Positions 7,320 through 58,400 of a stretch of DNA of 64,000 nt are shown here, piece by piece. This stretch comes from Lepisosteus oculatus. Taxonomy: Eukaryota > Chordata > Actinopteri > Semionotiformes > Lepisosteidae. A model generated the notes under the pieces. It worked only from the letters and a program-made list of their open reading frames with translations, made no database searches and was not told the origin of the DNA. Made by a program: the position numbers and the translations under genes. The stretch lies in the NCBI RefSeq assembly GCF_040954835.1, contig NC_090714.1, positions 2,964,501 through 3,028,500 on the forward strand, given 5' to 3'. Positions within the stretch are counted from its first letter, which is position 1. Every line of letters starts with the position of its first letter.

Positions 7320-8480
7320 CCAACATTCCTACCCAGAACAGGAACTGTCTGGACTCCTCAAACTCTTTATTTTACACAGATCATGAACAGTCATTGAAGG
7401 ACTTCCACACCATCCCACAGACTTGTCCAGTGAATATGCTGCCATGAGGAAGCTCCCTTTTGCACAAAGGGACTGGAGTTTCAGACCAATGCTTTTATCC
7501 AGAGTACCTTCAATTGCTACCCTTATATCCAAGCCACATACAGCAGTGCCCTACCTGGGATCTCTCTTCACTGGCTGTGCAGCAGGGTCAGTCTGGGTTT
7601 CCATGTCCTAAAGATAGAAACACACTTGGCTCCTCCTGGTATACGACTTCCCTCAAGAGCCTACAAACCTAATCCCTTGGAATGGAGCTCTTGTGGAATG
7701 CTGTTCTGGCAGATCAGATACTCCCCAGACATACAAAAATGGATCAGTGCAAGGTAGTTTATATACCCATGAAGTCTCAGTTCTACAGAGGCTCAGTCCT
7801 GTGCTTAAGGCTATACTGCCTACAGAGCAAATACTGAAGAGAAGCCAGCTCTTCCATCTAAAGCACATCTTTAAAATACATTAAGCAATGTGGACAAGCT
7901 CAGCTTGTTTTTGCATGCAACACCATGCACATTTACATTCAACATCACCCACTAGGAATTCTGCAATGGTAATCCACATCACAGCTTCAACTCACCCATG
8001 ACCTGGCACAAACATTCTCTCCACACATCTCAGGACAGCATCACTCACAGCATTTCCAAACCACAGCATAGCTTGTCAAGTCACACAGAGCATCAGCTGG
8101 CTTCAGGAACACTGAGCTGGTTGAATTTTCCAAGCCAGTGACATCTTGCTCTTCTCCCCAAACAGATCCCAGTACTTCCAAGCCACAGGAACATTAGCAA
8201 TACACCTCAAAGTGATTGATTCTCCTGTTCTTCTCCACCTCCAACCATAGTCTAAATGTTTTTTTTTACCCAGGCTTCCTTTTTATAAGCCTCTCATTAA
8301 TTACAGGGGCTTGGCTAATTCCATGGGAACCTATCGCAAAAGCTCTAAGATCCTCATGTGAAATGGCCAGGTGTGTCCAGCTCAATAATGCACACCTGCT
8401 TCCAGATCCTTCATGGCTAACAGAAGCATCACAGCCTGGACTTGAGCCAAAATGCAAGGTGCCTACAGAAGCCTTCTAGG
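7320..8480. repeat. CpG-depleted repeat-like region
   Basis: About 1.1 kb almost free of CpG and rich in CCA, ACA and CAG. It includes GCTTTTATCCAGAGTACCTTC then AATTGCTACCC and CCTACCTGGGATC (about 7490-7562), which resembles a dispersed element I associate with fish genomes. Strong CpG loss suggests a long-methylated repeat. No reverse transcriptase or transposase frame is visible. Confidence 0.4.
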
Positions 8481-8489
8481 GACAATATA

Positions 8490-9310
8490 ATATTGCTTTA
8501 ATAAATTATCCTTCAGCATTATTGGAACTGTATTTTTTCTAAACCTTTCAGCATACTTTATCCTATTTCAGAATTGAATTAAGAGAGAGATGATGATTTC
8601 ATTGTAGTTTATATATATTGATTTATACATATACAGATTTCAGCACCCAATATTATTTATCTTCCTACATCAGACTACTTGTCGATGCCTTCTATGATTG
8701 GAAGGGTGTTCTCAGTTGATGTATCACAAAGGAGAAACTAAGTGCTGCAGACTCATTGTGAAAACATGTTTTACTAGTAGAGTCCTCTGTTTTTAAAAAT
8801 AATAATGATTGATAAGAGTGTTGTAATTTCGGTTAACTAATGAGATTGAGGCATTACTTTGAGACAGAGACTTTGCCTTCCAATATTCTTGATGCTCTTT
8901 GTTGGCTGCCAATGTTTTAACTGTTTTTTCCTGTTGAACAGCCTCCTTCCCTTTTCACTGAGAATTGGTGGTTTTGGTAAGTAGGTATTTAATGAAACTA
9001 GCAGGGTGACTTTTTTGAATCATCACTAGAGTCTGAATGTTCTGAAAGAACATTTTATTTGTTTCTGCTTGTGGTTTTGGTTTTTCCTCATGCACTTAAA
9101 CAACTTCATCACCTCTGAGTTCTCATTTTCACCCCTTGATTTCTGTAAATCCTTTCTTTCCCTAAAAATGTGTCATCATCACTGTTTCCTCCTGGTTTCC
9201 CCTTCATAGACACAACCCATTATTAATGAATTATTATTAAAGAACTGCTCTTACTGCTTCTACCAGTTTGAAAAGTACAGGGATGGGAAATGGAACATGA
9301 ACATCTGCCT
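8490..9310. other. Intergenic, no gene seen
   Basis: AT-rich DNA with no supported exon, RNA gene or element edge. Confidence 0.5.
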
Positions 9311-9876: not shown

Positions 9877-10599
9877 AACATGGCTGCTGGCACTTATATC
9901 CCTTCTTATAGGGGCCAGAAACTCACAGGAGACAGCTTGTTCGTGTTATCCCTCTCAGAGGAATATTTGTAATAAACTAACACAGAGGTGTGAAGACACA
10001 TGTCCCTCATTTTCCTTATGTTGTTTCTCTTGTCTATGTAGGTCAGCTCACGTCCGTCTCCTTACAGGTTGCTTTAGTTTGTCAAAGCTCGTTCCTTGTC
10101 ATCCAGATCCATCTGGATACTGCATTTGCTTGCTTACTGATCTTGGCCACTGACTTTCTCTTTGCTGCTTGTTTGATACGAAGCAGCCCCAGGCCTCTCC
10201 AAAGTGACTGTCCTGCAAATCCGTTACAGCTGGGAGAATCTATTCTCTCCATCCGGATGAAGGACTGATATTTCATGAGCATTTGCTTATGTACCTTCTC
10301 TTTCCTCTTCCCCCGTTAATTCAATGAGATCTCCCTGCTTTGGTCTCGAAGCAAAGCAAGTACAGCACTGAGATAAATCAGGTTATAGAACAATAAACGT
10401 CCTGCAAAGAACTTCAGACCCCACAGCTCCACTGCATATTGCTAAATCCTTTCATTCACACTCCTGTGGCTCTCAAATACTAATAAGGATTTAATGTACT
10501 TATGTAAAGTGATGACTCAGATGGCCATGGGAAAAAAAAAATTAGACACTTGTAACTCATGGGGGCTTCTGTAAACAGGCTCGATATCTTTAATAAGTT

Positions 10600-10740
10600 T
10601 TCACGTGGAGCCAAGAAAAAAGCTGCCTGCACCGTCAGTCTGTAGCCACGCCCACTCGAATGACATCTCTCGCAGGCCACGCCCAGCGCACCTGTGCGCC
10701 AGGTTCTGCTGGAGAGAGTGGAGCTGAGTGCGTTTGTTCC
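10600..10740 (+). promoter_or_regulatory. GC-rich 5' end of the plus-strand small-exon unit
   Basis: A CpG- and GC-rich patch in otherwise AT-rich DNA, with GC-box-like CCACGCCC words repeated at about 10,646 and 10,678. It lies just upstream of the first donor (GAGCTGA then GTGCGT, GT at 10,728). Role as a promoter is inferred from position and composition; there is no TATA box at a suitable distance. Confidence 0.4.
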
Positions 10741-11065
10741 GCGTCTTTTATGATTATTTTTATTTTTGTTTTATTTGAATATAGATAAAGTTTAACTCAT
10801 GTAATTATGTAGTCTAAATCTCACATAAGAGAGTTTAAAACAGGAATTTACGTTGGGAGCTAAATAGCATTTTGTTATTTTTATTTATCTTTGTTCACAC
10901 AATCAAGGGTGTGCATGTTTCCAAACCGAAATAGCTTACTTAGATTTGTAAAGTTTTTTTTTGCATTACTTTAAAGAGCATTTTGTGTGTTTGTGCTCTT
11001 ATATTTGTGGTTAAAAAAAAGCTTGCAACAAATACTACTTTAAATGGTTTTTTAATTCAAAATTC

Positions 11066-11380
11066 TGCATTTTTGTGTTTTCAGTTTAGTGTCTTCGGGA
11101 AGGACATGCTTGGCTCAGCTGCTGCAATTATCCAAGTAAGTATAAACGTTTTATTCATTTCTTTACACATATCGCATTGACATATTTTCGGCGCTATCTA
11201 CCCTGGTGAAAACGTCGTTTGCTACTAAGAAACCTTGCTTTCAATTATCTTTAAATAATCGTCTGAATACGTGTGTTCTTGTGTTTTCAGTTTGGTGTTT
11301 TCGGGCAGGACACGCTTGGAATTACCGATGTAAGTATAAACCTTTTTTTCGTTTACACGTATCATATTGAAGTACATAAT
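11066..11380 (+). repeat. Tandem exon-plus-intron duplication
   Basis: The segment GTGTTTTCAG-exon-GTAAGTATAAAC is present twice, 206 bp apart (exons 11,085-11,135 and 11,291-11,329). Both exons share TTT.GTGT.TTCGGG.AGGACA.GCTTGG. The second lacks 12 nt (CTCAGCTGCTGC) of the first, which keeps the frame. Similarity continues into the downstream introns (TTTACAC.TATC.ATTGA). Confidence 0.8.
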
Positions 11381-12142
11381 GTATCTCCCGAGAATTCAAA
11401 AGAAGACTCAGACTAGGAGATACTAGATTTCTCTCGGGCAGAAATGGTTTTGACCCGACAATATTGTAGGCCTGCTGTTTATAGAAACGTTTTCTGCTTT
11501 CTGCTTATTTTATGCGTCTAATAGAATATTCAGAAACCGTTTAGGCTTTCGAATTGCATCACAACAATTAAAACAACGGAGCCTATAAAGATATGGATTA
11601 ATAATTTGTGTTAACTAAATTGTTTCAGAAAAAGAATGCTAAAAAGAATGTGAGTCTGCAATCGACACCCCGTAGCTGTATTGTGCTTTGGATATTCACA
11701 CTTGAAATGTAACTGCTTCAATACCCTCTTTAAACAGGAGCATTTTCGGTTACACCAGACTAGGCGCTTTATTCTTGTAAATCTTCTGAATATGCCAGTC
11801 AATAGAAGCTCGATCTAACTAGCTGGGATCTTTTCGAGATTGATTGTAACCGAAAGTTAATACCGATTTTTGTTTTTTTGCAGGAAATGCAACGAAGTTC
11901 CAGTCTTCATTCCGGTCGCTGCCTCGACTGATAACTCGGAGAAACAGTAACGTGCTGTGTGTTTCTGTATCTTTGCTTGTAGTTGTTTGCAAATGTTTTC
12001 TTACTCTGTTGACTTGTAACACTATTTAGCGTTAATGTAGCCGTGCTTTGACACTTTGTAATTGAAATGCATGTTTATTTCCACTTTGAAGCCTGTGCAT
12101 CCGACGTATTGTAATGCTTTGTTTTGTATGCCATTTTCGCTC

Positions 12143-12148
12143 AATAAA
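12143..12148 (+). terminator. Polyadenylation signal of the plus-strand unit
   Basis: AATAAA in CGCTCAATAAATTG followed within 25 bp by a T/GT-rich stretch (CTTTTGTTCTTTG), the usual arrangement for cleavage and polyadenylation. Confidence 0.6.
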
Positions 12149-12211
12149 TTGTTGATTGAACCTTGCTTTTGTTCTTTGATTTCTTGTGCAGTTCTGTACC
12201 CCCTTGGCCCT

Positions 12212-12376
12212 GAAAAACCCCGGTGTTGGTGAGTTTTTTGGCGGAGAGATTTTGCTTACAGTTTGTGGCCGCAAGGGGACCCCCTATCGCTTTTTGACTT
12301 AAAAAGGTCAAAGGCTACCCCCTTTTTAAGCGTGTCCAGATTTTCCCGCCAAAAAACTTAGTATCTGGGGTTTCTC
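12212..12376. repeat. Nested inverted repeat between convergent 3' ends
   Basis: A perfect 13-bp pair, AGTTTTTTGGCGG at 12,232-12,244 and its complement at 12,346-12,358, is enclosed by a second imperfect pair, GAAAAACCCC at 12,212-12,221 with GGGGTTTCTC at 12,367-12,376. A small hairpin (TTTGAC at 12,293 with GTCAAA at 12,307) lies inside. Transcribed from either side it could fold into a branched structure. It may also be a foldback-type element; no target duplication was identified. Confidence 0.6.
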
Positions 12377-12840
12377 TCGGGGTGTGGTAGCAATCAAGCC
12401 GAGCCTCGCCCACCCCCCCTCATTGGAGAGGGGTAGGCGGGGGCTGGCTGATTGACCGCAGCTCTAGCCAGGCCCACTCGCTCCCGGCAGGAGAGGATGG
12501 CAGGTTGGTGGTGGCTTTGGTCCCTGCAGAGAGGCAGGTCTCCTGGGGTGTGGACTTAGAAATCTGTCAGTTGCAACTGTGACTGATGGGCTGAGTCCGC
12601 CCTGGGTGCCTCCTCTCTCTCGGGCCGAGGCCACCTCCAGCCTGCCTTCCCCTCCTGCTGGGAGTGAGGGGGCTTGGCTAGAGCTAGCCTCCCTTCTCCT
12701 CCCCCCAGGGCTAGACCCACGCTCCCTCCTAGGGACCCTATTCCCCCCCAGACTATCTAAAAAGGCGGGCGTCCTCGCACTTTTCCAGGTCAGTGCGATG
12801 GGGTGTCGCCTTGCGGTGCGTGGCGCACGCGCAAGACAAC
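12377..12840. other. GC-rich spacer without recognised gene
   Basis: A GC-rich block with several overlapping open frames on both strands (up to 139 codons), as expected from composition. It contains CAATCAAGCC and GGCTGATTG as a possible inverted pair near 12,391 and 12,442. It ends just beyond the 3' end of the minus-strand unit. No domain or splice logic supports coding. Confidence 0.45.
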
Positions 12841-12869
12841 ACTTCACACCTTCGAAAATACAGGACAAT

Positions 12870-14156
12870 GCAGACAATGAAATGAGTTTTTATTGCAGAA
12901 TTCACAGCACATACAATAGCAGCAATCAACAGAAAACATGCAGGTCAAGAAAAAAATACAGCACTGAATCGGGATATTACAGATCAAGCCACTGGTAACA
13001 AAAATCAAATGTAACAAAAAGCACACATTGTCGAGAAGAACTTGGCCAACGGTCGTCGAGTTGCTGGAGTGGAGCTGGAAAGGAGATCGCCGGAGCGCAG
13101 AGAACCAGGAGCCGCAGAACTGAAGGCAAAAGAAAAAGGATCAAGTTAACAGGATATCGGACTTGTAGAATCGATTCACTTGAAGTTCTGAAGCCTATTA
13201 ACTGTTTAAATAAAATGCCGGAATAAAGAAATATTAAAACACTCAAATTGAACAATAAACCATGGAAAATCACCAATACATCTCAGTCCTACGAGTCCAA
13301 TATTTACAAAATACGTTCAGCCACATTGAAATTCGAAGCTACTTGTCAATACAAGACCAGGTATCACAGCGTGTATAATATATGAATAAACTCTGCTTTG
13401 AAAACCATCGAAAAAATTCGTCGGTATTATCCATCTTTACACAGTGAATTCAATAGACAAATAAAAGTATCATAAAAAAGAACCAGCGCCTTAAAGTTTA
13501 CTCTACAAAAGCACAATGAAACGAAAACTGTTCTTTTGTAAAAATGCTGGGAAATACGTGTTGTTTTATCGAGTGTTAGCGGAAGTTAGGAATAGAACTT
13601 ACCTTGGAAAAACACTTTCATAAGAGGTCCATTCTTGAAATCATTTTTAATCACCTGGAGAAATAAAGAAAAACGAATCAATTTCATCTTTACAACACCC
13701 GAAAAGGAGAGATTACACAGCTACTGACTTTATACAGCAAGTGTTTGAAAATAAATTACAGCCTTTTTTCGTTAAAGGAAACAGAGTAAGAGATACCATA
13801 TCTTAAATAAAACATACTTACATGAAAGGTAGTATAAGAACGCTGAAACCAGACTTTTAAAACTTCGAGAGCACGCTCAAACGGACTCTTTAGACTCTTC
13901 TCGGCGTCCTTAAACACAAATTAAACAAGAACAAACGCAATTAACAAAAGTTGCAACAACAATACATTTTTGTCTAACTTTCCTCAAAGTGAAATTTGAG
14001 TTTTTGTCTTTAAAATAATAAAATTAGAAATAAAACGCAAACGCACCTCACTCTGCAGAAACTCTCCCCGCCGCCATCTTGCCGGGCGCACCTGTGGAAC
14101 AGGTGGACGGGGCGTGTCCGCTGAGGAAGGTCACTCTGGGGGCGGGCTCGGCTCAT
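12870..14156 (-). ncRNA. Compact four-exon transcription unit (lncRNA or short-peptide gene)
   Basis: Not recognised. On the minus strand the exons are: first exon ending at 14,052 (donor GTGAGG), 13,908-13,822 (donor GTAAGT), 13,654-13,603 (acceptor TTTCTCCAG, donor GTAAGT) and a last exon from 13,119 (acceptor TTTTGCCTTCAG) to about 12,870, with AATAAA at 12,894-12,889. Only one frame is open in each of exons 2 and 3, and the two join in frame. If transcription starts far enough upstream, an ATG at 14,156 gives a 128-codon frame with stop at 12,979-12,977. A shorter 53-codon frame starts at the ATG at 13,621; it begins MKVFFQVLRLLVLCA, which looks like a signal peptide. The unit converges on its plus-strand neighbour, with about 700 bp between 3' ends. 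Coding remains unproven. Confidence 0.45.
12889..12894 (-). terminator. Polyadenylation signal of the minus-strand unit
   Basis: AATAAA on the minus strand (TTTATT on plus), about 85 bp beyond the last in-frame stop. Confidence 0.55.
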
Positions 14157-14200
14157 GAACGACAGCTGTGCACTCGGTTACAAGGATATTCACGATACTG
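14040..14200 (-). promoter_or_regulatory. CpG-rich promoter with YY1-type motif
   Basis: CpG-dense block at the 5' end of the minus-strand unit. On the minus strand it holds CAAGATGGCGGC (14,071-14,082), the classic YY1 site that often lies just downstream of a transcription start. If the start is here, the ATG within the motif would open only nine codons, and the longer frame from 14,156 would not be transcribed. Also present are GGGGGCGGG (GC box) and an ACCTGTGGAACAGGT inverted repeat (14,091-14,105). Confidence 0.5.
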
Positions 14201-15780
14201 AAGATAAAAAGAAACTTGAACTCACTAAATCATACATAAAGATTTAACGGCGAAGGATTTTCAGAGAACCTAATTCAGTGACATTCTCCTACAAAGCTGT
14301 TCGCCGGACTCGTTTATCTTGCGGCCAGCTGGTCGAATCAAGAGAAATGTACTGGAGAGAGACCCCTGTCGCTCCTAGTTAGGACTGCACCTCTCTCTCA
14401 CTGCAAGTGCCACACCCATCCTGCAGGTGTCTCAGTGGTATAAGGGGCTGCTTTTTCGAATTGAATTCCGATCTATGCATTTATAAAGGACTTAAACCCC
14501 CCATTTGCCCTGTTTTGGAAGGCCCCGAAAATGGAGCCCCCCAAAACGGCCGGCGTGGTAGAGAACAGCCACTTCGACAAACTCACCCCGACAGCATGAG
14601 AGCTTCACCCGGGGATTAGGTCTCAGACCGGGAATTAGGTCTCAGACTGACGGGAAGGCTCGGGGCTCGACTTCAACTCAAGACTCTCCGGGAGCCGATC
14701 TGCTCTCTGAACTTTAGACGTGTCCGATGGTTCAGCCCGCGGAGCCACCAGGCCGGCCACGCAAAATACCGGCCATGTAGATCTCTTATTCAGCCTAAAA
14801 TCAAGTCATAGTTCCGAGATGAGGCGGTTCGCCTGTTTGCTCTCTTTTCACGCATTAAAGCTACTGGGATGGCTTTGTAATGCGCTTTCTTAGCCGTTTT
14901 TGCGACTGGACATGACTTTTTGTATTGAAATGAAAACAAATTTTTAATGTTCAATTCAAGTTTCAACAAGGTTACTTCATCAACACGTCAATGCAAAGAT
15001 AATGAGTTTTTTTTAAATAAAAAAATATGATGAATTATGTTATGTGGAAATAAAACTAGTTTCAAATATTTACGAGGTCTGTTCGTGTGAGACACTGAGA
15101 GTTTCCAAGATGCTGTTTTGTAGATGTGTTATGAACTACCTAGGTCAACTTGGTATATAGTGTCCCTTAAGAAAAAATCCGAATTTGCTTTGCATAAAAT
15201 ACATAATAGAACCAACGTCACGTACTACACGAAGTAGCTAATTCTAGTATTTCTGAGTACTTGGCTCGAAAAACGTGTCGAATCTTTAAACATCCCTTCA
15301 TTTGCATATTTAAAACACAATGAGAAACTGATTACTTCAGATTTAAAGACCTCCCCCAGGGCAAACAAAGAAACAAAACTGCAATCACACTTACCCTCCC
15401 ACCAGTTATATACTGTAGTGTTTCAGCTTTCCTGACGGGGTTGCTCGCGGTCAAAGACGCCGTGCAGGGTCACGGAGGAAGAAGGCGATATATCTGGGGA
15501 CCGAAAGCAGCACTAAGGTAACGAATGTGGTGGATTTCATCGTTTGTGCCGTTTGTAGGAGGGCTAAATTCACAGAGCTGACAGATTGCATTAATGTCTA
15601 CTTAGAACTGGCACCGAATTTCCATTCGTGTGCATCATCATTGGTTTATTTGTGCTGGCATATTCTTGTGGGTCATCTGAAAGTTCAATTCCATAATCTC
15701 TGAAAGTTCCTGGCTGCAGAAGCTCTAGTTTCGAGGTCTTCTGAGCGTTTTTGGAAACGTTTCTGAAAAATTAGTGCATT
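14200..15780. other. Intergenic, no gene seen
   Basis: Mixed composition with scattered CpG. A 70-codon frame near 14,407 has no recognisable features. GGGATTAGGTCTCAGAC and GGAATTAGGTCTCAGAC form a short direct repeat at about 14,613-14,649. Nothing else supported. Confidence 0.5.
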
Positions 15781-15781
15781 C

Positions 15782-15880
15782 AATCTGTGGTTCTTAATCC
15801 TGGTCCTGGTTAGCCGGTGTCTGCTGGTTTCTGTTCCAGCACGGTACCTAATCACCGCTGATGCTGCAGGCCGTGCCTGG
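15782..15880 (+). mobile_element. Fragment of the hAT-MITE family
   Basis: CTGCTGGTTTCTGTTCCA matches the inner arm of the better preserved element at 26,633-26,945. The outer terminal repeats are not clear here, so this is a truncated or diverged copy. Confidence 0.4.
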
Positions 15881-17010
15881 ATCTGATTTGCCTGCTGGGA
15901 TAAATGATTTCTGCACTCAGTCCTTGGTTTCCAGCAACGCCCTCACTCCTACCTCGAAGCAGTCTCTCCTCATTTGACTCATTTCTCATTTCACTAGCTT
16001 CTGAGGAAACACCTTTTGCAGGAGGGCAGTCCCGACACTCACTGATGTGCACAAGGTACACACAGACGACAAATCTCAGTCGTTTTTTAAGAGCAGGAAA
16101 CGTTTTTTTCTTTCAATCAATGCCTCGGGCTGAACATTAAAATACATTGCCCTGCAATGAAGAACTCGTACAGAGCGAAAAACAGACCACACAATCTACC
16201 ACTCTCTTGGTATATTGGACACCAAGGCCTAAGTGCAGAAAAAAAGTTGAAACAAGCCACTAGTTACAGACTCCAATCAACACTGGTGTATAAGAGCCAA
16301 GATGCAACAAAAAATAAATAAAAACAGACCCCGAACCAAGACTGAGAATCACAACCTATGGGACCCGAATCTGGCACCTCTGACTACCTGTATGGGTTTT
16401 GACTCCCCAGGTGTCAGTTCCCCATAAATAAGGCAAGGAGTCTCGCCTGTTGCTTTTCGTTTCTGCCTCTGGAAGCTTTTTCGTTTTTTTTTTTCTTCTG
16501 CCAGAGAAAAGAATCTCCTTCTTGACTCATCACATATTTGACACCCATCCTCCTTCCTGTCGCTTCCTCATCGTGCAACTGTCGGATTATGGGTCTGTGT
16601 TTCTGTGCTGCCCGGTCCGAGTAATCGAACGGGACTGGCTGTCAGGGCGCATGCGCGTCGCAGTGGCCTGCTGGCACTGCCCGGTTCCAGCACTGTGCGT
16701 GAGCGCTGCGTCAGCCGAATAGACCACGTACAGGTCAAGTGTACTGAAAAGTAAAAGGGGGAAAATTTTGGACTGTTTGGCCTCTTCAGGCGTCACACTT
16801 AAGACCTGAAGATGGCTCAACAGCGGCATTGCGACTCGTTACTTCTATTTGTCAATGTGGAATACGTTTTTTAATGTTGCTTTTAATATTCTGTAGGGGA
16901 TTTAACTTCATTATTTCAATAACTATTCCGCAGTCCAGGGGGTTAACGGGGCTTCGGGATGAACAGCAGTACAGTGCAGACTATACTGTTATTAAGGAAC
17001 GAGTAATAGT
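15880..17010. other. Intergenic, CpG-bearing, no gene seen
   Basis: Contains short open frames only. The part around 16,560-16,740 is CpG-rich on both strands (CTGTCAGGGCGCATGCGCGT), with an NRF1-like GCGCATGCGC at about 16,646-16,655, but no exon can be tied to it. Confidence 0.4.
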
Positions 17011-17011
17011 T

Positions 17012-17076
17012 TTATTCCATGCTGAAAAGAGAAGAAAAAAAACACAACGTTTCGGCTGTGGAACCTTCTTCGGGGT
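17012..17076 (-). mobile_element. Foldback element fragment (CAACGTTTCGGCTGTG family)
   Basis: TTATTCCATGCTGAAAAGAG then CACAACGTTTCGGCTGTGG and CCTTCTTCGGGG. It is the reverse orientation of the palindromic element at 56,050-56,166, with the same GTTTATTCCATGCTGAAA arm. Confidence 0.55.
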
Positions 17077-17779
17077 AACGATAGGATCATTAATAGTAAT
17101 GGTTAAAAACCTGTCGTCAACTGGGACATAAAATTCAAATATTTTCAATACAGGTTTAATACTCTCAGGAATAACCGCCGCGCTCCAGGTACAGTAATCT
17201 ATTAAAGTCTGAAAGATAAATGGATTAAAAAAAGTTTTCACTGCTATTTCATGTGAAATGTTCTCATTTGCGTCGTTCTTTTTATGTTTTGATGGTGAAA
17301 AGGCGTAAAGTATTTCTCGATTTAACATCGAGGACGTTGTGTCACCTGTGTGTGTCCCCCTTTGAGGCTCATTGTGTAGAGCTTTGTGTTATTTTTATAA
17401 CCCCTTCTCTCCTCATTACAACATAACATGCAGCATTGAAATACCAACAACGTCCTAAAATGATACAAATTATTAATATTCGAAAGGCTGTTGGTTTTCG
17501 AATTGCAGCCTACGCCATAGAGCCACAGTGCCTTCTATCGCATTCCTGTCAACACGATTATTTAGTTCCAATAAAAAAAAAATCGACAGGGGTGGATAAG
17601 TTTGAAAAAAACGGGAAAACCGATAGCTCCTTTCGATGCACAAATCTACGATTTTGGCAGCTCGGGAGTCTTTTAACACTGTCGGGCAGCTTCAAGCGCA
17701 GTGAATCGTTTAGTAAGATTACACGGGCGTTTGGCCTGGGAAAATAAATACCCCGTCTGTCACCCACATAATCCTGACA

Positions 17780-18720
17780 GACACAATCCAGACACACACA
17801 CACTCCCCTCATCGCGGACACTCGCTCAGCCGAGCACTGTCCGGGGCGGGACCTGTGTCGCTGACGCCTTGTTGTGAAGTGATGGAGTTGGACAGCTGGG
17901 GAAACGTGCGCTCAGACAGTCGGCAACACCACACTGGGAATCACAACATCCTACCCCGGGGAGCCTCGGCGGTGCAGAAGGAGAGCGTTCGTCTCATCGC
18001 TGCTGCAGCAGAATCACACAGCGGACTTAAAAGCCCCCCAATGCAGACAGGTTTAATACAAAGCGCCACTGACCAGACAATAGAGCCGCTCAACGCCGTG
18101 TCTCCGGGGGGACAAAGGCAGTGAAAGACAGGGGACTGATCCCGGCAGCCACCCACCGGGAGCTATTTCTGGGATACCGGGGGGGAGCACGATCGAGGGG
18201 AACAGTGGATGCCCCAAAGCTGACATCTCATCTCCTTCCGCGGTGAAGAATGCGGCTTGTGCGGAGGGCTTTGCGGCGACACACGCGAACGATTGGATCT
18301 GGACCGAAACAGACACCGGGGATAGACTTGATGTCGTCTAACTTTGTGAACAGCGAGATTTGACGCTGGCGAGACATTTTTATTCTTCAAATCCGTATTC
18401 CTCGGGAGGGGTTAATTGCACCACTTCGGTCAACAGAATTGAAAGGCAAACGGCGGGGGGAACAATAGTCTGAAATCCATTCTCAGTAAAACCCCGGAGC
18501 AGCGACTGGCTCAAGCGCACTACCTATAGCAGGACCGATCCAGCCCAGGAGCGTGACCGACCCAGATCCGGAGAGATCCCGAAAAACAGCCCGGTTAGCG
18601 GCGTGCTCATTACAGCCGAGATCGATGCGAGGAGTCCCGGTGATCTCATACTGTCAGCAGGGGGTTTAAACCGAAATGTGACTCTATTTACCTCCAATAC
18701 ACACACACACACACGTGATT
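17780..18720. promoter_or_regulatory. CpG-island-like region, orphan promoter candidate
   Basis: The densest CpG stretch outside gprc5c (for example CACTCGCTCAGCCGAGCAC near 17,820 and GGGGCGGG near 17,843). Open frames on both strands are short and unrecognised. It lies 15-16 kb upstream of the first coding exon of gprc5c, which must have upstream non-coding exon(s), so it is a candidate promoter for that gene; the link is inference. A (CA) tract closes it at 18,698-18,714. Confidence 0.4.
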
Positions 18721-21600
18721 CAGTATTCTGGAGTCGGAGATTTGATTAGAAGGTAGGTGTCGAAGCCGTGTGTTGAATTGAGTTTTCCCTCCTATGGAAA
18801 TAATCAAGTAAAAATACGACGGATGTTTAATTTTTGTAAAGTTGCATGTATAGCTTTGAAAATATTAAGGGCTTTTAATATGAACTACCCTTTCTACCTC
18901 ACGGAATGTAAATTGGACGGCGTGTATTTGTTGTGCCAGTAGACTGTGGATTCTCGCTCATTCTCTATGTGGTTTTCTTCAGCGCTTGTTAACCAGCTTC
19001 TCTACAGAAGGATACAGAAGCTCCCGGTGAATTTTAAACTGACCTCTGAGCCTGCTAAAGGGACCGTCTTGTTAATTCCCTTTTCACAGACTCGCGGAGA
19101 AGTGCCGGTATAAATTAAGGAGTCGTGTTTGTCCACTCGGTCCTCACCCTGATCTTCAACTCCGGCTGGAAAGGTTACTCGCCTGACTTTCCTCAGAGCA
19201 AGGAGGTCTCTGATCCCGGCTCTGCAATTGTCTGGTGTCCCTGTGACAGCATCAAAATACACGATGCATATTTTAATTTCTTCGAATCTTTTCTTAGGAT
19301 AAGAACATGCGCAACTGACATATTCGTGCCAAGGTATAAAAGGCTGTATTCCTGAGTTCGTTTAACAAAGCGAGGTTGTGGTAGGTAAGAGTGTAAAACA
19401 GTTCATCTGTCAAAGAAGGAAATCGATTTTTCCCCCCGAAGAGAGTCAATAGGACACCGCAACTCATTTTCGAATTCACCTGACAGATAATGGAATAGTT
19501 TCTCCCTGATCTTTTTGATCAGTCTCAAGGCAACCTCATACGTACCGTAGTGTGTGGACAAAGCTTCGAGGTTGTGTATTTAGCAAATGTCTTTTTTATC
19601 ACCCCATGGTATAAATAGACCACACGTGTTCTAAAATGGCTTGACAGTCTTAGCACCCCCCAATAAAACGTTTGATTGATGTGCGAGGTCTAAATCCACC
19701 GCACATCATTACAACCCTCTCTAAAAAAAAGTCAATGCCCTATGCTTTACGCCAGAGCGTCCGTACTGTACATGCTGAGCGACGGACGCACATTGTTGCG
19801 AGAGAGCTGTGTGAGATCGGGCACGCACTGTGAATGTTCAGCTATGTGAATTCCCCTGCTGTCTCTCCCCAGCAGCTGGGCTCTATACACGTGATTGCTG
19901 TCAATTGAAGTTGTTTTCACCGTTAGTGCGGGCTTTCAACATTTCGCTTGAGTTTAAACCCCCTCCCTGCTTTTATCGTTCAAAAGGAGTCAGTGTGGAC
20001 GAAAGCGCCGTACTCTTTACCAATTTCCCCCGTGTTCCGTAGCCACTTTTCCTGTTAGCTTTCGTTCCCCAAAGGTGTTTTCGGGAACATTTTTGTTCTC
20101 TTGGAACGCGAAGAAAACTGTATCATTAGGACAAACTCTTCATAACTGATTGCATGTAGACTCCCCATAAAGATCTGAAGGACAGTCTTTAAGGGACTCC
20201 TGCACCCATTGCCAACTCGCAGGTTACACCATTTCACATAATGTGAAGGTGTAACTCGTAAGGGCCACTCCTTGCACAAAATCCGTATTATGGTGGCCTA
20301 TGGCAGTGGATAGACTCGCATGGTGCGCAGTTGGCAGTTCAGGCACAAGTGCTGCCCAGGTTATAGCTGAGCTGCGGCTTCTCGGATGGCTTTTCTTTCC
20401 CTCTTTGCCTACGATGGGAGTCTGGGCTCTTCCATTATGAAGTACAGACATCTCTTCCTAAACACATCTGAAAAGAACAAGACGGTTTTTCATTTCTCCA
20501 CGCCAGTTGTCAGCCCTCCAAATAAAGCACTAGCAAAGTCGAGCAAGGGCATCGTGGTTGAATTAAAGGTGCCAGGCAAAGAGGGGAGACAGGTGCGCAG
20601 TCACAGTTTAGAGCCTAATTAATCTGTCGTACGTATGTCAGATCGGCACAACGCTTTCAATCGGCTACTTGAAGCTGACTGTCGCTTGTGGAGATTAAGA
20701 GTTTTAGGTTAATCTGTTAGACGCACTCCTTCGTTTTGTGTGAATCGGAGTTTCTAAATAAAAGCACTCAGTCACAACGGTACAGAAAGGTATTAAACAT
20801 ACCTCACTGACTCTATGTGTGCGTTAATAATTCTTGAAAGGGTATTGCACTTCAGACATTTTGTACTCTACGTTTACCAATACGTAGCTCTTCACAAGTA
20901 CTCAAAGATCTTCCCAAGTTTTTTTTGAATGCTCAAAGATTATGCTATAATATTCCACTGAGCCACTTCAGAGTGCTCACTTCTGAAGAAGACTCTAGAC
21001 TCGAGGTGGGACCCCCACATTAGGTGTTGTGTGTTAACACTGTGTGTGGGGATTTTGAAACCTTTGAAACGCAGAGTGTCTATCAACATTACACATGGAT
21101 ATGTTTTCCCTAAATGGACATCATCAAACTATTTTACACTTTAATGTAAATTTATTTTTTTCCCGTTCCTTTATGTATAGCATTTAAATTGTCGCGTCGT
21201 ATTTTTCGTCTTTATAGTGAAATAACAGCTTTGTTTTCTATGACGCCTTTAGAATAAAATACTATGCAACAAAACTCACATTTACAAAATGCGCATTACA
21301 AAATACATGGACTGAAATAAATGAAAATCGATGAGCAACAACACATTTCCACTTCTATGAATAGATCTCTAAGAACGATTAAGATCTTGAACTCCTGTCA
21401 AGCTACTGCGTTATTATCTACAACTACCCTCCTATGCTTATCAGACTATTTTAACAAATCCTTCAGAGTAAACTCGTCTAAAACTGCTTTTTTATAAGAA
21501 GGATATACATATCTCACTGGCAGAGCCGTAACGGAGTTCATCCTAACAAGCTGCTTAAAAACAAGCAGCTTGGAAAAGTAGAGGAAGGGCCTTCGGAATA
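18720..21600. other. Intergenic, moderately CpG-rich, no gene seen
   Basis: CpG frequency stays raised to about 20.6 kb and then drops. TATAA-like words occur (GTATAAAAGGCTG at about 19,335; GGTATAAATAGACC at about 19,609), but no exon or open frame can be tied to either. Possible hypomethylated regulatory domain, unproven. Confidence 0.4.
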
Positions 21601-21603
21601 ACC

Positions 21604-21727
21604 GCAAGCAGCGACACTCTCAGTGAGGAGGAGAGCAGAGTGATGAAGCCAGTTCACAAACAGGGATTATTAGGAGGCCATGATTGGTAAAGGCAAATGG
21701 GAAATTGTCAGGACGCCAGAAACTGAC
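21604..21727 (+). repeat. Partial copy of the 560-bp dispersed repeat
   Basis: GAGCAGAGTGATGAAGCCAG, GGGATTATTAGGAGGC and CATGATTGGTAAAGGC match the middle of the element at 9,313-9,876. Only about 120 bp is retained. Confidence 0.65.
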
Positions 21728-21729
21728 CC

Positions 21730-23870
21730 CGCTAATTCACCGTGAAGAGCACCTGTGATTTAAAAGCTGGGAAAACTACCAGTTGTCGAGAGTCGTTAAC
21801 TAAAACCCTCAAGCGAAATGAAGAACTAGATTCACTTTCTATTCCAGGACGGACCTTTGACATTAAGTAATAATAATACAGATGATAAAAGACACAGAGT
21901 CATTCGGGCGCTCTGGTTGTTTGGCTGTCCCGCGACCGTTTGTGTCAACAGTGCATGTTAGCTTCCAAACGCAATTTCACTAGATTTGCATGTCTGCCCT
22001 CAGAGTCCTGTTTAATTGTCAGTCCTGAAGTAGTCGACAAAGTTTCAGTGCGTCAATTGGCTACCGCTCAATTCACCTCCCCGTATAAAAACGTGTTCGT
22101 CTCCACTTCTTGTCAGATCCAATTAGTCTTCTAGAGTCAATTCTACAGGATTACTTAATTGCCGAATTGAATGTTTTTTATTATTGACGGTCTTGATTAC
22201 ATGTAATATTTCCAAGTCCTGGACAGGACTGAGTTCCTGTGAAAGAGGGAACTGCAGCTACCCAGGATCCTAAAATGAGTTCCTTTATACTGCACATCAT
22301 ATAGATTAATTGTATGAAACTTTATTACGAGCTATATGAATAATTATATATGAACAACGAACATTTGCTTTATTTAAATTGTGGTGCTTTAAACCACTAA
22401 ATATCTTTAGGTGTAGTCTTCCAGTTTGATGATTATGCTCTGATACTTAAAATGTGTATTCTTACTGCTTGCATGTCATACTTAACACTTCAGTTTCATC
22501 TGAATTGCATCTCTGCTGTCCAGAATGTCTAAGCCTATTTATGTATATACAAATCTTGATATATACTGTATATATAAAACACTTGAATGGACCGCCAGTA
22601 TTTGAATGGACCCTTTATTGTTGTGTATGAAAACGTGTAGCAAGTGTGCTAAGTGTCTGATATACCACCACCTTGGACCCTCAAAAACGATTTATCTAGT
22701 CTGGAGGGATTTTATCCATGTCGATGGGGATAACGGTGTAAAGGAAAAACGAATGGAAGGGTTAAATCATATTTAATCAGTATTCTTTATTTAGAGACTA
22801 GCAATTATCTCTACCCCCATTTGAATAATCTCTCTTTGTTTAAGGAGAGTAGTCATGGGGCATGTATTCTATTGTGTCTGGGTGCGCAGACTATAATTTC
22901 TTTGGAGGGGCTCTCTAAAAATAATATTAAAACCCGTCATAAAAAACGAGAACAGCTACAGTAATTCACATAATAGTTGAGCGATATGTAGGGGTCATAA
23001 ATCTTGAGAGCGATCCAGCCAGCCTCTGAGTTCAGAGACCTTTAACCCCTGACTCAAAGTAAAATTTCAGTTGACGTTTGTCAGGCAACTGAACATTAAA
23101 GTGGAGATCTCCGTCCACTTCCGCTGTCAAGAGATTTTTTGTATGCTGCGTTCCAATGGCCTGCTCTGAGCAGCTGAATCTCCAAACCTGTCCTTTATGA
23201 ACTGCACATGAAATACCTGCACCCTGTTATGTTTGTCAGAATTCAGCAGTTATGTAGCATAGCTGTAACTGGCCTGTGTTTTTCTGTTTTCTGGGTGGCT
23301 TAGGCAACAGTTTGCTTCACGACAAATGAATGTGAATTTCCGCGACCGGCGCCAGAAAACCTCAGGACATTCATTTGAATTTTCCGGACCTTTCAAGTTG
23401 TCTTTTATTTTTTAAATAATCTGTCCCTCCTTCCCCCCACATCAGTCTTCGGCCCTCTTTTTTTCTTCCATGTTTTTGTTAAATGCCACAGAACACCAGA
23501 TTTCCTCTTTTTTCAGTTCAACAGTTTGCTGAGCTTTAGAGCAGTTCTGCTGTGCAAAACAAATTTGATGTCTGCCACAGGACAGAATCAGCCTTCATGG
23601 TCTGAACAAAAGAATATCTAGCTTAAGTTGTTACATTGCCTTCAGAGAGAGACCATTGTTTTTCTAAACATAATGTACATTTCATCTCTGCTGTAGGTTT
23701 AGTGCAGGGCATCTGCAGTTACTACTGTAATGTATAGTTTTCACTTCAGGCTATTACAATGAAAAGACTCACAATATGCAACTAGGCAATGCTCGTGGCA
23801 CATGACATTGCCCTTTTCTTTTTATAATCCACACTAGTTTAAGGGTGCAGATGATTATTAAACAGCTAGG
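21730..23870. other. Intergenic, no gene seen
   Basis: AT-rich. A TA-rich simple tract lies at about 22,556-22,577. No supported exon. Confidence 0.5.
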
Positions 23871-34110: not shown

Positions 34111-34118
34111 CCTAGGTC
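34111..34118 (+). other. gprc5c: Splice acceptor just before the gprc5c start codon
   Basis: TGCTTCTCGATCCTAG ends at 34,115, only three bases before the ATG at 34,119. A pyrimidine-rich tract plus AG here indicates that the 5' UTR lies mostly in one or more upstream exons, as in vertebrate GPRC5 genes. Confidence 0.6.
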
Positions 34119-37100
34119 ATGGCGCGCTGTTCTCAGTGGCTGGCCCTCTTCCTGCTCCTGCTCTCCCTGCTAGGGGGGGGCTCCTCCCAGAATTCCAGCG
34201 CCCCCCGCGGCTGTGGCCTGGGCCTGCCGGCGTCCTACACCCCGCTGTGCGACCTGGAGGCCGTGTGGGGCATCGTCCTGGAGGCGGTGGCCGGGGCCGG
34301 CGTCCTCACCGCCCTGCTGCTGGCCCTGGTGCTGCTGGGACGCCTGCCCTTCATCACGGAGCCGGAGAAGCGCAGCCCCGTGGGGCTGCTGCTGCTGCTG
34401 CTGCTGGGCGTGCTGGGCCTGTTCGGCCTCAGCTTCGCCTACATCATCCGGCCCGACGAGAGGGTGTGCGTCGCCCGCCGCGCCCTCTGGGGGGTGCTCT
34501 TCTCCCTCTGCTTCTCCTGCCTGCTGGCCCAGGGCTGGCGGCTGCGGAGGCTGGCGCGTCAGGGAAAGAGCCCGGGAGCCTGGCAGCTCTGCTGGCTGGC
34601 CATCAGCCTGACCCTGGTGCAGGCCATCATCGCCACCGAGTGGCTGGTGCTCACCGTGGTGCGGGAGGGGCAGCCGGCCTGCGGGTACCTGCCTCTGGAC
34701 TTCACCCTGGCTTCGACCTACGCCCTGGTCCTCCTGCTGGCCTCCCTGGTCCTGGCCGTGCTCTGCCTGTGCGGGAAGTTCTGCAAGTGGAAGCGCAACG
34801 GGGTCTTCCTCGTCCTCGCCTGCCTGCTCTCCCTGCTGCTGTGGGCGGCCTGGTCCGGCTTCTACCTGTACGGCAACCGGGCCCTGGGCCACCCGCCGCT
34901 GTGGGACGAGCCCACCCTGGCCATCGCGCTGGTCTCCCACGGCTGGGCCCTGCTGCTGCTGCACGCCATTCCCGAGGTGCACTGCTGCGTCCGGCCCCCG
35001 CCCCCGCCCAGCGCCCCGGACTACTTCGACACCTCGCAGCCGCCCCCCCGCCTGCGCGAGACCAGCTTCGACGAGGACGTGGCCCTGCCTCACCGGCCCT
35101 ACATGGAGAACCAGGCCTTCTCCTTCGACGAGCACAATGCAGGTACGGGCCGGCGCACGCTGCCCGGGTAGGTTCGGAGGGGAGCCGCACAGCCCTGTCA
35201 AACACTGGCTCCAATCTGAGGGGTCGGCGGGGTGCTGCAGGGGTGAGAACTTGGGGTGTTGTGGTTCTCTCAGGGTGGCCCTCCTGGTGCTCCGGTTTTC
35301 TCCCGCAGCCCAAAGGCAAAGGCTGGCAGGTGGATTGGCTTCTGGGAAAATTGGCCCTGGTGTGAGTGTGTGTGTGTGTCTGTCTCAGCCCTGTGCTGTC
35401 CAGGGTGTGTCCCGTCTTGTGCCTGTGTGTTGCTTGCTGGGATAGGCTCAGGCTCCCCCGTGACCTTTGAATTGGAGGAAGAGGTTAGAAAATGGATGGA
35501 TGGGTAAAATTCATTTGATGCCCCGGGCGCGCCGCAGCATTGCTCGTGCCTAGGTCTGCTGTCAAGAGGTTTACTCGTCAATTAGCTCTCAGCGGAGGTA
35601 GTCTTGAATGGTGACTCACTGAAACGCTCCGCTCCCTTCTGTCACGTGCAACAGCGAACAGCCTATAAGCCTTCTCCTTTCACTGAAAGATTTTTTCTAT
35701 AAAAGCAAAAAAGCAGCTATTTTCTTCTTCCTTTAATTCCGCAAAGAAAAGCCCGAAAGTCTGGCAGGTGTTAAATGGATCAGAACCCTACCACGGCTCA
35801 GGACAGCTGCTGACTCTTTGAATTGTCTTTTTCAGATATTTGTCGGTCTAAAAATGTCTGCATTAATCTGCAGTTCCACCCGGAACACGGAGAACATGTT
35901 CCTGTCTTTGAAGGCGTTCCAAGTTTGTCACACATCGCTTCGCTGCCTCTGCCACACATTTCGCATCCAACTTGCAACTGGGTCGCCTACTTGAAGGCAG
36001 TTGAAAAATTGGCACAGATTATATAAACAGACTTCAGCTAAAGCCTGAGACCCAGATTCGTTCCACACATTAATCCATCCATCCTTCCATTTTCTAAATG
36101 TCTCATCCAATACAGGGTCACTGGGGAGCTGGAGTCTATCCCAGCAAACAATGGGAGGAAGGCAGGATACGCCCTGGATGGGACACCAGTCCATGAGTCC
36201 ACCCAGCCCTGAGGCTGTCAGAAACCCACACACGCGCTGTGCAGCCCCAGTCTTGTTCCACATTGCCTCTGAATATATTTCTCTTCGATTAACATTATCT
36301 GGGATGATTCTCACTGTTTGTCTGCAGTGTCGCCTTTTTAGTAGTGGCTAAAAAGCTTTCTTGGGCTGAGAAAGGTGCTGGTGGCTTGAAAAAAAGCACA
36401 ATACAATTGCTCTGCAAAAGGACAGTTGTATTATTTAAGGGCTGTACAGTATTCTGTAATAAAAATACTGTAATAGTGTCATTGTGTGGAGGGTGTGTGC
36501 AGCATTGTTGTCTTCCAGCGCTGGAGCCCTGAGTTCCATTCCTGGAGTGCTGTCTGCGTGGAGTTTGTATGTTCTGCCCGGATTTCCTCCAAGTGCTTCT
36601 GTTTCCTCCCACAGTGCAAAGACATACCTGCAGATGAATTGGCTTCTGGGGAAACGGACCCTGGTGTGAGTGTGGGTGTCTGCGAGGGGCTGGTTATCCT
36701 GTCCAGGGTGCCTGTTGCTTGCTGGGATAGACTCTGAATTAGTTGAAGAAAACAGAAGGGTGCAAGCTTGTGTAAAGACAACCGACAGTGTGAAGTGCAA
36801 AATATACGAGTGCCTTCCAGCTTGCATGAATTTCAGTTTACAGGAGGGTGTGCGGAATGTATCTGTTGTGTAACTCAGGGAGTGTCTGTACTTTCTCACC
36901 TGTTAGAGGAACTTGGGCAGTAAAATTGTCCTTCAAAGCTCGGAACTGATTGCTTATGCTACTATATAAGTAGCCACGACTTGGATCGAGTGACTTAATG
37001 CCAGTCAGTTGCTAGGCACCAATAGACTATAGGCCCTGTTAGCTGTTGTTGTATCCTGTTGTGAAATCATGAGCTAAGGCGTGTGCTGTGAACAATAAAA

Positions 37101-57998: not shown

Positions 57999-58400
57999 TC
58001 CTGTAGTGTGGGGTGTGCATGGTGATCCATGGTCAGGCCATGCCCTGCTCCAGTAACGACACACTCCTGTGCTGCACAGCCTCTGATCCTGTAGTGTGGG
58101 GTGTGCGTGGTGATCCATGGTCAGGCCATGCCCTGCTCCAGTAACGACACACTCCTGTGCTGCACAGCCTCTGATCCTGTAGTGTGGGGTGTGCGTGGTG
58201 ATCCATGGTCAGGCCATGCCCTGCTCCAGTAACGACACACTTCTGTGCTGCACAGCCTCTGATCCTGTAGTGTGGGGTGTGCGTGGTGATCCATGGTCAG
58301 GCCATGCCCTGCTCCAGTAACGACACACTCCTGTGCTGCACAGCCTCTGATCCTGTAGTGTGGGGTGTGCGTGGTGATCCATGGTCAGGCCATGCTGCAG
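57999..58400. repeat. 88-bp tandem repeat (about 4.5 copies)
   Basis: The anchor GGTCAGGCCATGC starts at 58,031, 58,119, 58,207, 58,295 and 58,383, an exact 88-bp period. Units are nearly identical (for example one C/T change in the third), so the expansion is recent or kept uniform by unequal exchange. It lies less than 100 bp beyond the acceptor side of the coiled-coil exon, so it would sit in the preceding intron of that gene. Confidence 0.92.

What the first reader, a model, noticed from the sequence alone, without database searches (positions are those of the whole stretch)
10660..14156. Convergent pair of compact small-exon transcription units
Two units face each other with about 700 bp between 3' ends. 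Each has a GC-rich 5' end, small internal exons (21-87 nt) with near-consensus splice sites, and a terminal exon with AATAAA. Neither translation is one I recognise. Compact convergent genes with tiny exons inside a gene-poor, CpG-rich domain are unusual and could be overlooked by standard gene finders. They may be lncRNAs, a small-RNA host pair, or short secreted/nuclear peptide genes.
Basis: partly seen in the sequence, partly recalled or inferred. Interest (0 to 1): 0.75.

Follow-up and report, generated by a model that had tools for sequence, protein, structure and literature searches.

The report
Repeated convergent noncoding RNA gene pair
Two small spliced genes that point at each other, which look noncoding, turn out to be one copy of a module repeated some sixty times in this fish-like genome, with an almost unchanging promoter and a long RNA-hairpin sequence between the two genes; what the RNAs do is not known.

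Summary
The observation largely holds, and there is more to it. Both units carry GT/AG splice sites, poly(A) signals and GC-rich first exons. The decisive evidence came from the window's own 1.2-Gb genome: the ~4.5-kb module (about 10371-14860) is repeated, mostly on contig C19. A 27-base core of the unit-2 promoter has 67 matches genome-wide (62 exact, none with two mismatches, control 0). A promoter pattern shared by both units gives 116 matches (control 0); among the 100 listed, 42 pairs lie under 6 kb apart and all 42 are convergent. Neither unit shows coding constraint. The intergenic 12167-12880 is an array of long hairpins (z about -12), 1.9% diverged within C19 against 17-19% for introns. 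Introns keep CpG (o/e 1.0-1.25 in 22 of 22 rows), which implies lack of germline methylation. Best reading: a multicopy family of co-regulated, convergent noncoding RNA gene pairs. The hairpin's role is open: RNA hairpin, 3'-flank terminator or conversion hotspot; covariation support is absent. There is no expression evidence here.

The parts
10371..14860 (.). Repeated module as found in this copy (both units, hairpin block, upstream block)
   Evidence: Alignable to 22 fetched copies, one truncated; few copies align outside about 10.37-14.86 kb. Other copies share further flanks that this copy lacks.
10640..10727 (+). Unit 1 first exon / promoter-proximal segment (true 5' end not known)
   Evidence: 88 nt in 23 of 23 rows (window included), no indels; donor GT in 22/22 copies.
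10678..10704 (+). Unit 1 copy of the shared promoter pattern CACGCCC..ACCTGT..CAGGT
   Evidence: Only two matches of a close form in the window, one per unit; genome-wide pattern 116 matches, control 0.
11085..11135 (+). Unit 1 exon 2 (optional or decaying; tandem relative of exon 3)
   Evidence: Tandem duplication with flanks; acceptor 12/17, donor 17/20 in copies; identity only 0.64.
11291..11329 (+). Unit 1 exon 3
   Evidence: Acceptor 22/22, donor 21/21 in copies; 51 nt in 19 of 23 rows, 39 nt here.
11629..11649 (+).
   Evidence: Donor GT in 1 of 16 copies with letters; identity 0.55.
11884..12165 (+). Unit 1 terminal exon, AATAAA at 12143-12148 (end approximate)
   Evidence: Acceptor 21/21, AATAAA 20/21.
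12167..12880 (+). Hairpin block, essentially the stretch between the two poly(A) signals: H1 12213-12371, H2 12383-12458, H3 12458-12687, smaller hairpins about 12760-12860
   Evidence: z -12.2 (+) and -11.8 (-), 20 shuffles each, on 12165-12880; within-C19 divergence of 12200-12860 1.9%; H1 23-mer 47 matches genome-wide.
12458..12687 (+). H3, an about 100-bp hairpin
   Evidence: 102 pairs on +, 86 on -; stronger on + in 32 of 32 copies folded. No compensatory changes in 31 rows.
12870..13119 (-). Unit 2 terminal exon, AATAAA at 12889-12894 (complement; end approximate)
   Evidence: Acceptor 21/21, AATAAA 21/21 in copies.
13603..13654 (-). Unit 2 exon 3
   Evidence: Acceptor and donor 21/21 each; one of three mini-exons in the window with both sites scoring 6 or more.
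13822..13908 (-). Unit 2 exon 2
   Evidence: Acceptor 21/21, donor 17/21.
14047..14156 (-). Unit 2 first exon, two donors (14052 and 14047), both kept; 5' end not known
   Evidence: 14052-14156 is 105 nt in 22 of 23 rows (empty in the truncated L016); both donors 21/21; 14047-14156 diverges 2.9% within C19, 3.2% C19 to C27.
14090..14116 (-). Near-invariant 27-base core of unit 2 promoter/first exon
   Evidence: 67 matches genome-wide at up to 2 mismatches: 62 exact, 5 with one, none with two; control 0.
14300..14780 (.). Second conserved block upstream of unit 2, not unusually structured
   Evidence: 14300-14800: 84-97% identity in the 39 other scored copies; fold z -1.0 and -1.2.

Best explanation
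This is one copy of a multicopy family of noncoding RNA genes that come as convergent pairs. Two co-regulated Pol II-type units (same promoter pattern, GC-rich first exon, small exons, own poly(A) signals) face each other across a 0.7-kb array of long hairpins. The module spread by segmental duplication, mostly within contig C19 and to C26, C27 and C20, and is kept by purifying selection; the central block is probably further homogenised by gene conversion within C19. Kept CpGs imply that the units are unmethylated in the germline, hence probably active in germ line or early embryo (inferred). Shown by sequence: pairing, copy number, kept promoters, splice sites and poly(A) signals, lack of coding constraint, hairpins. 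Inferred: transcription, germline activity, RNA-level function, mode of spread. Most likely role of the block: it is transcribed from the + strand (read-through of unit 1 or a promoter of its own) and acts as RNA hairpin in 3' processing/termination or as a small-RNA source; this step is weakly supported.
For: Repeated module (40 candidates scored each). Promoter 27-mer 62 exact of 67 matches on six contigs. Shared promoter pattern 116 matches, control 0; 42 of 42 pairs under 6 kb apart convergent, 3227-5114 bp spacing (from the 100 places listed). Splice and poly(A) signals kept in copies. First exons without indels. Divergence within C19 (17 rows): block 1.9%, unit-2 first exon 2.9%, unit-1 first exon 5.8%, exons 7.6-12.7%, introns 16.9-18.7%. 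No synonymous excess in the unit-1 frame (30 of 108, 0.278, against 0.282 expected); unit-2 frame not kept. Intron CpG o/e 1.0-1.25 in 22 of 22 rows, window included, against mean 0.27 (0.09-0.64) in the left flanks of 19 copies. Plus-strand bias of H3: arm differences 11 G.U against 1 A.C, p 0.003; changes among 22 copies 11 against 2, p 0.011, partly the same positions; stronger + fold in 32 of 32. Unit-1 introns show no such transition bias (A>G 117, T>C 114, C>T 82, G>A 76); unit-2 introns have C>T 35, G>A 50.
Against: No transcript evidence of any kind was available. Pair covariation in H3 is absent: 0 pairs with changes on both sides, and neither the paired percentage (95.4) nor the covariation score exceeds shuffles; 12 pair-breaking transversions occur in H3, and H1 and H2 show no clear G.U bias among copies (4 to 3, 4 to 2). 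Block divergence drops from 8.6% (C19 to C27) to 1.9% (within C19), so part of its likeness may be gene conversion. Small internal exons are not clearly better kept than introns: identities are 0.64 (unit-1 exon 2), 0.77 and 0.80 (unit-2 exons 3 and 2) against 0.65-0.89 in introns, and unit-2 intron 1 (0.89) exceeds both unit-2 exons. Splice scores alone do not recover unit 1 as drawn. 16 of 100 listed promoter matches have no partner within 6 kb at zero mismatches. The block itself is CpG-poor (o/e 0.49).
Confidence: 0.7

Rival explanations
1. The module is a transposable element or passive segmental duplication, with no function of its own.
For: Forty or more copies in both orientations; some copies are recent duplicates (97% over 17.8 kb).
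Against: Divergence is very uneven along the module, most splice sites and the poly(A) signals are kept against decaying neighbours, one 27-mer is exact in 62 of 67 matches, CpG is kept, and no common ends were found because flanks are shared further out.
Confidence: 0.12
2. The hairpin block is the source of hairpin-derived small RNAs (hpRNA-like endo-siRNAs), and the units are its host or partner transcripts.
For: About 100-bp hairpin kept in 32 of 32 copies folded, stronger on +; G.U against A.C bias. Drosophila hpRNAs are long inverted repeats, some in clusters, and targets of young ones are X-biased (PMC10317233: start of abstract, passages).
Against: No target was found or properly sought; strong endo-siRNA pathways outside mammalian oocytes are not known to me in vertebrates (recalled); no covariation; the block lies outside both units if their poly(A) sites are used.
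Confidence: 0.2
3. The block is a DNA-level feature: a break-prone palindrome array that drives gene conversion among copies and gains GC by biased repair; its homogeneity is a by-product.
For: Within-C19 divergence far below C19 to C27 (1.9 against 8.6%), GC 0.586 in the block against 0.32-0.34 in introns, weak correlation of block and unit-1 intron distances (rho 0.14, 136 pairs); identity falls off gradually on both sides; no covariation.
Against: Plus-strand G.U bias is not expected from DNA palindromes; the arms are not homogenised with each other (88 of 109 aligned positions alike).
Confidence: 0.3
4. Unit 1 encodes a conserved micropeptide of about 60 aa (exons 1-3-5).
For: The frame runs to a stop at the same or nearly the same place (58-62 codons) in 15 of 22 rows.
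Against: No synonymous excess (0.278 against 0.282 expected), ATG lost in 5 of 22 rows, earlier or later stop in 7 of 22; no Pfam or credible PDB match for the 81-aa version with exons 2 and 4.
Confidence: 0.06

Closest known systems
Multicopy lncRNA gene families (recalled as a class)
   Same: Spliced, polyadenylation-signal-bearing, no coding constraint, several paralogues.
   Different: Here two units form a convergent pair with the same promoter pattern and a hairpin array between them, in about 60 copies.
Drosophila hpRNA loci (for example the pncr009 cluster; PMC10317233, passages)
   Same: Long inverted repeats, some clustered.
   Different: The hairpin lies between two convergent units; no target or small RNA is known; vertebrate.
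Non-methylated islands of cold-blooded vertebrates (PMC3583005, start of abstract)
   Same: CpG kept without high GC.
   Different: Here a sequence inference only, and the signature covers the small genes but not the hairpin block.

Membership tests
lncRNA gene | Spliced, polyadenylated transcription unit | tested here: inconclusive
   Sequence signals are kept in copies; transcripts could not be tested.
lncRNA gene | No coding constraint | tested here: met
   no credible family match.
snoRNA/miRNA host gene | Conserved small RNA in an intron | tested here: inconclusive
   No Rfam match at gathering, far sub-threshold ones, no exact C box in the introns; but unit-2 intron 1 is conserved at 0.89. 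H/ACA and degenerate boxes were tested only through Rfam.
Transposable element family | Even, neutral divergence along the copies | tested here: not met
   Uneven divergence.
Transposable element family | Common ends with target-site duplications | tested here: inconclusive
   Flanks are shared beyond this copy's apparent ends; outermost ends were not reached.
hpRNA | Long inverted repeat in a transcript | tested here: inconclusive
   Inverted repeat present; transcript unknown.
hpRNA | Dicer-dependent siRNAs and complementary target | not testable with these tools
   No small-RNA data; targets not sought.
Non-methylated island | Absence of DNA methylation in germ line | tested here: inconclusive
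   CpG o/e 1.0-1.25 in introns of 22 of 22 rows is indirect.

The most novel reading that the evidence does not exclude
A vertebrate genome carries about sixty copies, concentrated on a few small chromosomes, of a paired RNA gene in which two co-regulated convergent noncoding units flank a closely kept 100-bp RNA hairpin that is processed in the germ line. It would be a chromosome-biased RNA system comparable in logic to the hairpin-RNA networks that fight meiotic drive in flies, or to a dosage-type RNA system.
Probability: 0.12. Interest if true: 0.92.

Novelty: new variant of a known kind. Interest (0 to 1): 0.7.

Why it matters
If true, a family of some sixty paired RNA genes has gone unremarked, as far as my searches show, because its exons are tiny and noncoding. 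A 27-base promoter core that is exact in 62 of 67 matches, beside intron sequence that has drifted by about a fifth, points to strong function. The set gives ready material for asking why a noncoding locus would be amplified as a convergent pair, how gene conversion acts within a small chromosome, and whether long vertebrate hairpins feed a small-RNA pathway.

Tried and rejected
Protein family and structure searches of the predicted ORFs and six-frame Pfam scans of about 10-25 kb gave nothing credible. Rfam at relaxed E-values gave eight rows, all far below gathering scores, led by MIR1858 at E 1.7e-06 on the GC-rich hairpin H3; treated as chance. The idea that units 1 and 2 are inverted paralogues along their whole length was tested: with the stricter scoring the match is inside the range of shuffles (31 against a maximum of 41 for the promoter stretches and 39 for the whole units); with the looser scoring the promoter stretches score 92 against a shuffle maximum of 75. 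Only the promoter pattern is claimed. A first splice-chain run used too low a penalty and chained the whole window; for 10500-14400 it gave 1 and 5 of 400 shuffles at or above the plus and minus scores. It is superseded. The 128-aa frame of unit 2 looked striking in the window alone (1 of 2000 shuffles; unit 1's 81 aa, 68 of 2000) but is not kept in copies. Covariation support for H3 was sought and not found; in the 22-row block fold only 3 of 240 pairs showed double changes. Exact-pattern scans of viral contigs found nothing. Papers: eight searches, of which five asked for such a family or its neighbourhood and showed none in their listings; some searches were on methylation and hairpin RNAs. 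Only listings were seen, plus passages of PMC10317233. The tRNA scan used bacterial settings. The species was not identified; gar or a similar ray-finned fish is a guess from recall.
Full report
Observation. Scored with simple position weights recalled from general knowledge, a unit-2-like chain (donor 14047, exon 3, terminal exon; exon 2 skipped, an upstream exon added) is the best compact chain of the window at the stricter penalty and second at the looser one. Within 10500-14400 no shuffle of 1000 reaches the minus score at either penalty. The best plus score is reached by 10 and 23 of 1000, and that chain is not unit 1 as drawn. The surrounding 10.5-23.5 kb keeps CpG (o/e mostly 0.6-1.1) at ordinary GC while most of the window outside it does not, apart from stretches in the first 4 kb and the GC-rich gene at 34-36 kb. 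No Rfam family reaches its gathering score.

What it is. The window lies in a held 1.2-Gb genome (contig C19, 17.9 Mb). Unit-1 DNA (11070-11360) has further copies there, at 75-91% identity in the main rows, and unit-2 DNA (13590-14170) at 77-91% (each scored only 40 candidates, so these are lower bounds). The gap between the units, 12165-12880, came back in 40 scored copies including this one: 33 on C19, 5 on C27, 2 on C26, 36 of the 40 at 91-100%. Counting by short patterns gives 47 matches for a 23-mer in hairpin H1 at up to one mismatch (45 exact; C19 36, C27 6, C20 3, C21 1, C26 1) and 67 for the 27-mer in the unit-2 first exon or promoter at up to two (62 exact, 5 with one mismatch, none with two; C19 36, C26 18, C27 8, C20 3, C2 1, C21 1). 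Controls with the pattern read backwards gave 0 in both. An 18-mer at the foot of H3 gives 117 matches at up to one mismatch, since it also catches the other arm.

Pairing. The two promoters of this window share CACGCCC, ACCTGT and CAGGT at the same spacing. That pattern with free spacer bases has 116 matches in the genome and 0 in the control. Of the 100 places listed there, 84 form 42 pairs less than 6 kb apart, and in all 42 the two point at each other, 3227-5114 bp apart (29 pairs on C19, 10 on C26, 3 on C20); 16 are single. Two of the singles (C7:5960163, C19:7770202) have other spacer bases and were not followed.

Conservation. Twenty-two further copies were aligned (one truncated; fetched; alignment). 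First exons have no indels (88 nt in 23 of 23 rows; 105 nt in 22 of 23, the other empty). Splice sites and poly(A) signals are kept as listed in the observation check, against 50-77% on average for other GT or AG in introns. Pairwise divergence within C19 (17 rows) is 1.9% in the hairpin block, 2.9% in the unit-2 first exon, 4.9% in block B (14300-14780), 5.8% in the unit-1 first exon, 7.6-12.7% in other exons, and 16.9-18.7% in introns. Between C19 and C27 the unit-2 first exon remains at 3.2% while the block is at 8.6% and introns at about 22%. So the first exon of unit 2 is the most strictly kept part over the longer distance, and the extra likeness of the block within C19 points to conversion there. 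Small internal exons are not clearly better kept than introns, and unit-2 intron 1 (identity 0.89) is better kept than unit-2 exons 2 and 3 (0.80, 0.77); I have no explanation for that intron. The copies are related and not independent.

Noncoding. The 128-aa frame of unit 2, striking in the window alone (1 of 2000 shuffles), is not kept: 17 of 22 rows lack the ATG, stops occur, and exon lengths vary out of frame. In unit 1 the frame through exons 1, 3 and 5 ends at the same or nearly the same place in 15 of 22 rows, but synonymous changes are not in excess (30 of 108, against 0.282 expected) and the ATG is lost in 5 of 22 rows. Pfam and PDB searches are empty apart from one noise row.

Hairpins. 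The block folds with z -12.2 on + and -11.8 on - (20 shuffles each). H3 has 102 pairs on + and 86 on -, with 17 against 1 G.U pairs. Aligning its arms as DNA gives 11 differences of the G.U kind for + and 1 for - (p 0.003); H1 gives 8 and 2; H2 gives 4 and 4; H5 3 and 2. Among 22 rows new transitions in H3 pairs are 11 to G.U and 2 to A.C (p 0.011), while H1 (4 to 3) and H2 (4 to 2) show no clear bias, and 12 changes in H3 break pairs by transversion; transition directions in unit-1 introns are balanced. In 32 copies from C19, C26, C27, C20 and C2 the + fold is the stronger in every one. Against this, there is no compensatory change in 31 aligned H3 copies, and neither pairing nor covariation exceeds shuffles of the 3' letters. 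A plus-strand RNA is therefore plausible but not proven. Block B is not structured.

CpG. Introns of all 22 rows counted (window included) have CpG o/e 1.0-1.25 with TG+CA near 1 on average, the left flanks of 19 copies average 0.27, and the hairpin block 0.49. This fits long-standing lack of methylation in the germ line over the two units, an inference in line with work on non-methylated DNA in cold-blooded vertebrates (PMC3583005; start of abstract only).

Not a simple transposon. A family of dead elements should diverge evenly; here neighbouring stretches differ about tenfold. The apparent ends of this copy are not the ends of the repeat, since other copies share flanks further out. Segmental duplication with selection and conversion fits better.

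Mechanism. Shown: a multicopy convergent pair with matched promoters, kept processing signals, no coding constraint and a hairpin array. Inferred: transcription in germ line or early embryo and RNA-level function. The block is read as a transcribed + strand structure with a role in 3' processing, termination or small-RNA production; the rival that it is mainly a conversion hotspot is nearly as likely.

Context. A GPRC5-family receptor exon lies at 34116-35168 (Pfam 7tm_3; closest PDB chains GPRC5D). Within about 10 kb of two other C19 modules lie a Polycystin-1 exon (L012) and a GLI-like zinc-finger exon (L009), so at least these copies sit among ordinary genes.

Noticed in passing
34116-38370: GPRC5-family receptor gene on the + strand (7tm_3; closest PDB relative GPRC5D), with a likely later exon near 38.2 kb (by eye, from recall of the family).
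   Followed up: partly
14860-23500: The CpG-keeping domain continues for over 8 kb beyond the module without Pfam matches; it may be the upstream region of the GPRC5 gene.
   Followed up: partly
7400-9250: CpG-poor stretch of which parts recur beside other modules at about 68-82% identity; nature unknown.
   Followed up: partly
13909-14046: Unit-2 intron 1 is as well kept (0.89) as the better exons; reason unknown.
   Followed up: no
57999-58395: Tandem repeat of 88 bases, 4.5 copies, 99% alike.
   Followed up: no
12905-13044: Segment of the unit-2 terminal exon that is duplicated in tandem in several other copies; some copies also have a second unit-2 stretch.
   Followed up: no
G000:C19:12825270-12838145: Two modules face each other as a large inverted pair with equal or near-equal match scores, which suggests a recent palindrome.
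   Followed up: no
G000:C7:5960163 and G000:C19:7770202: Lone matches to the shared promoter pattern with different spacer bases, possibly relatives outside the family.
   Followed up: no
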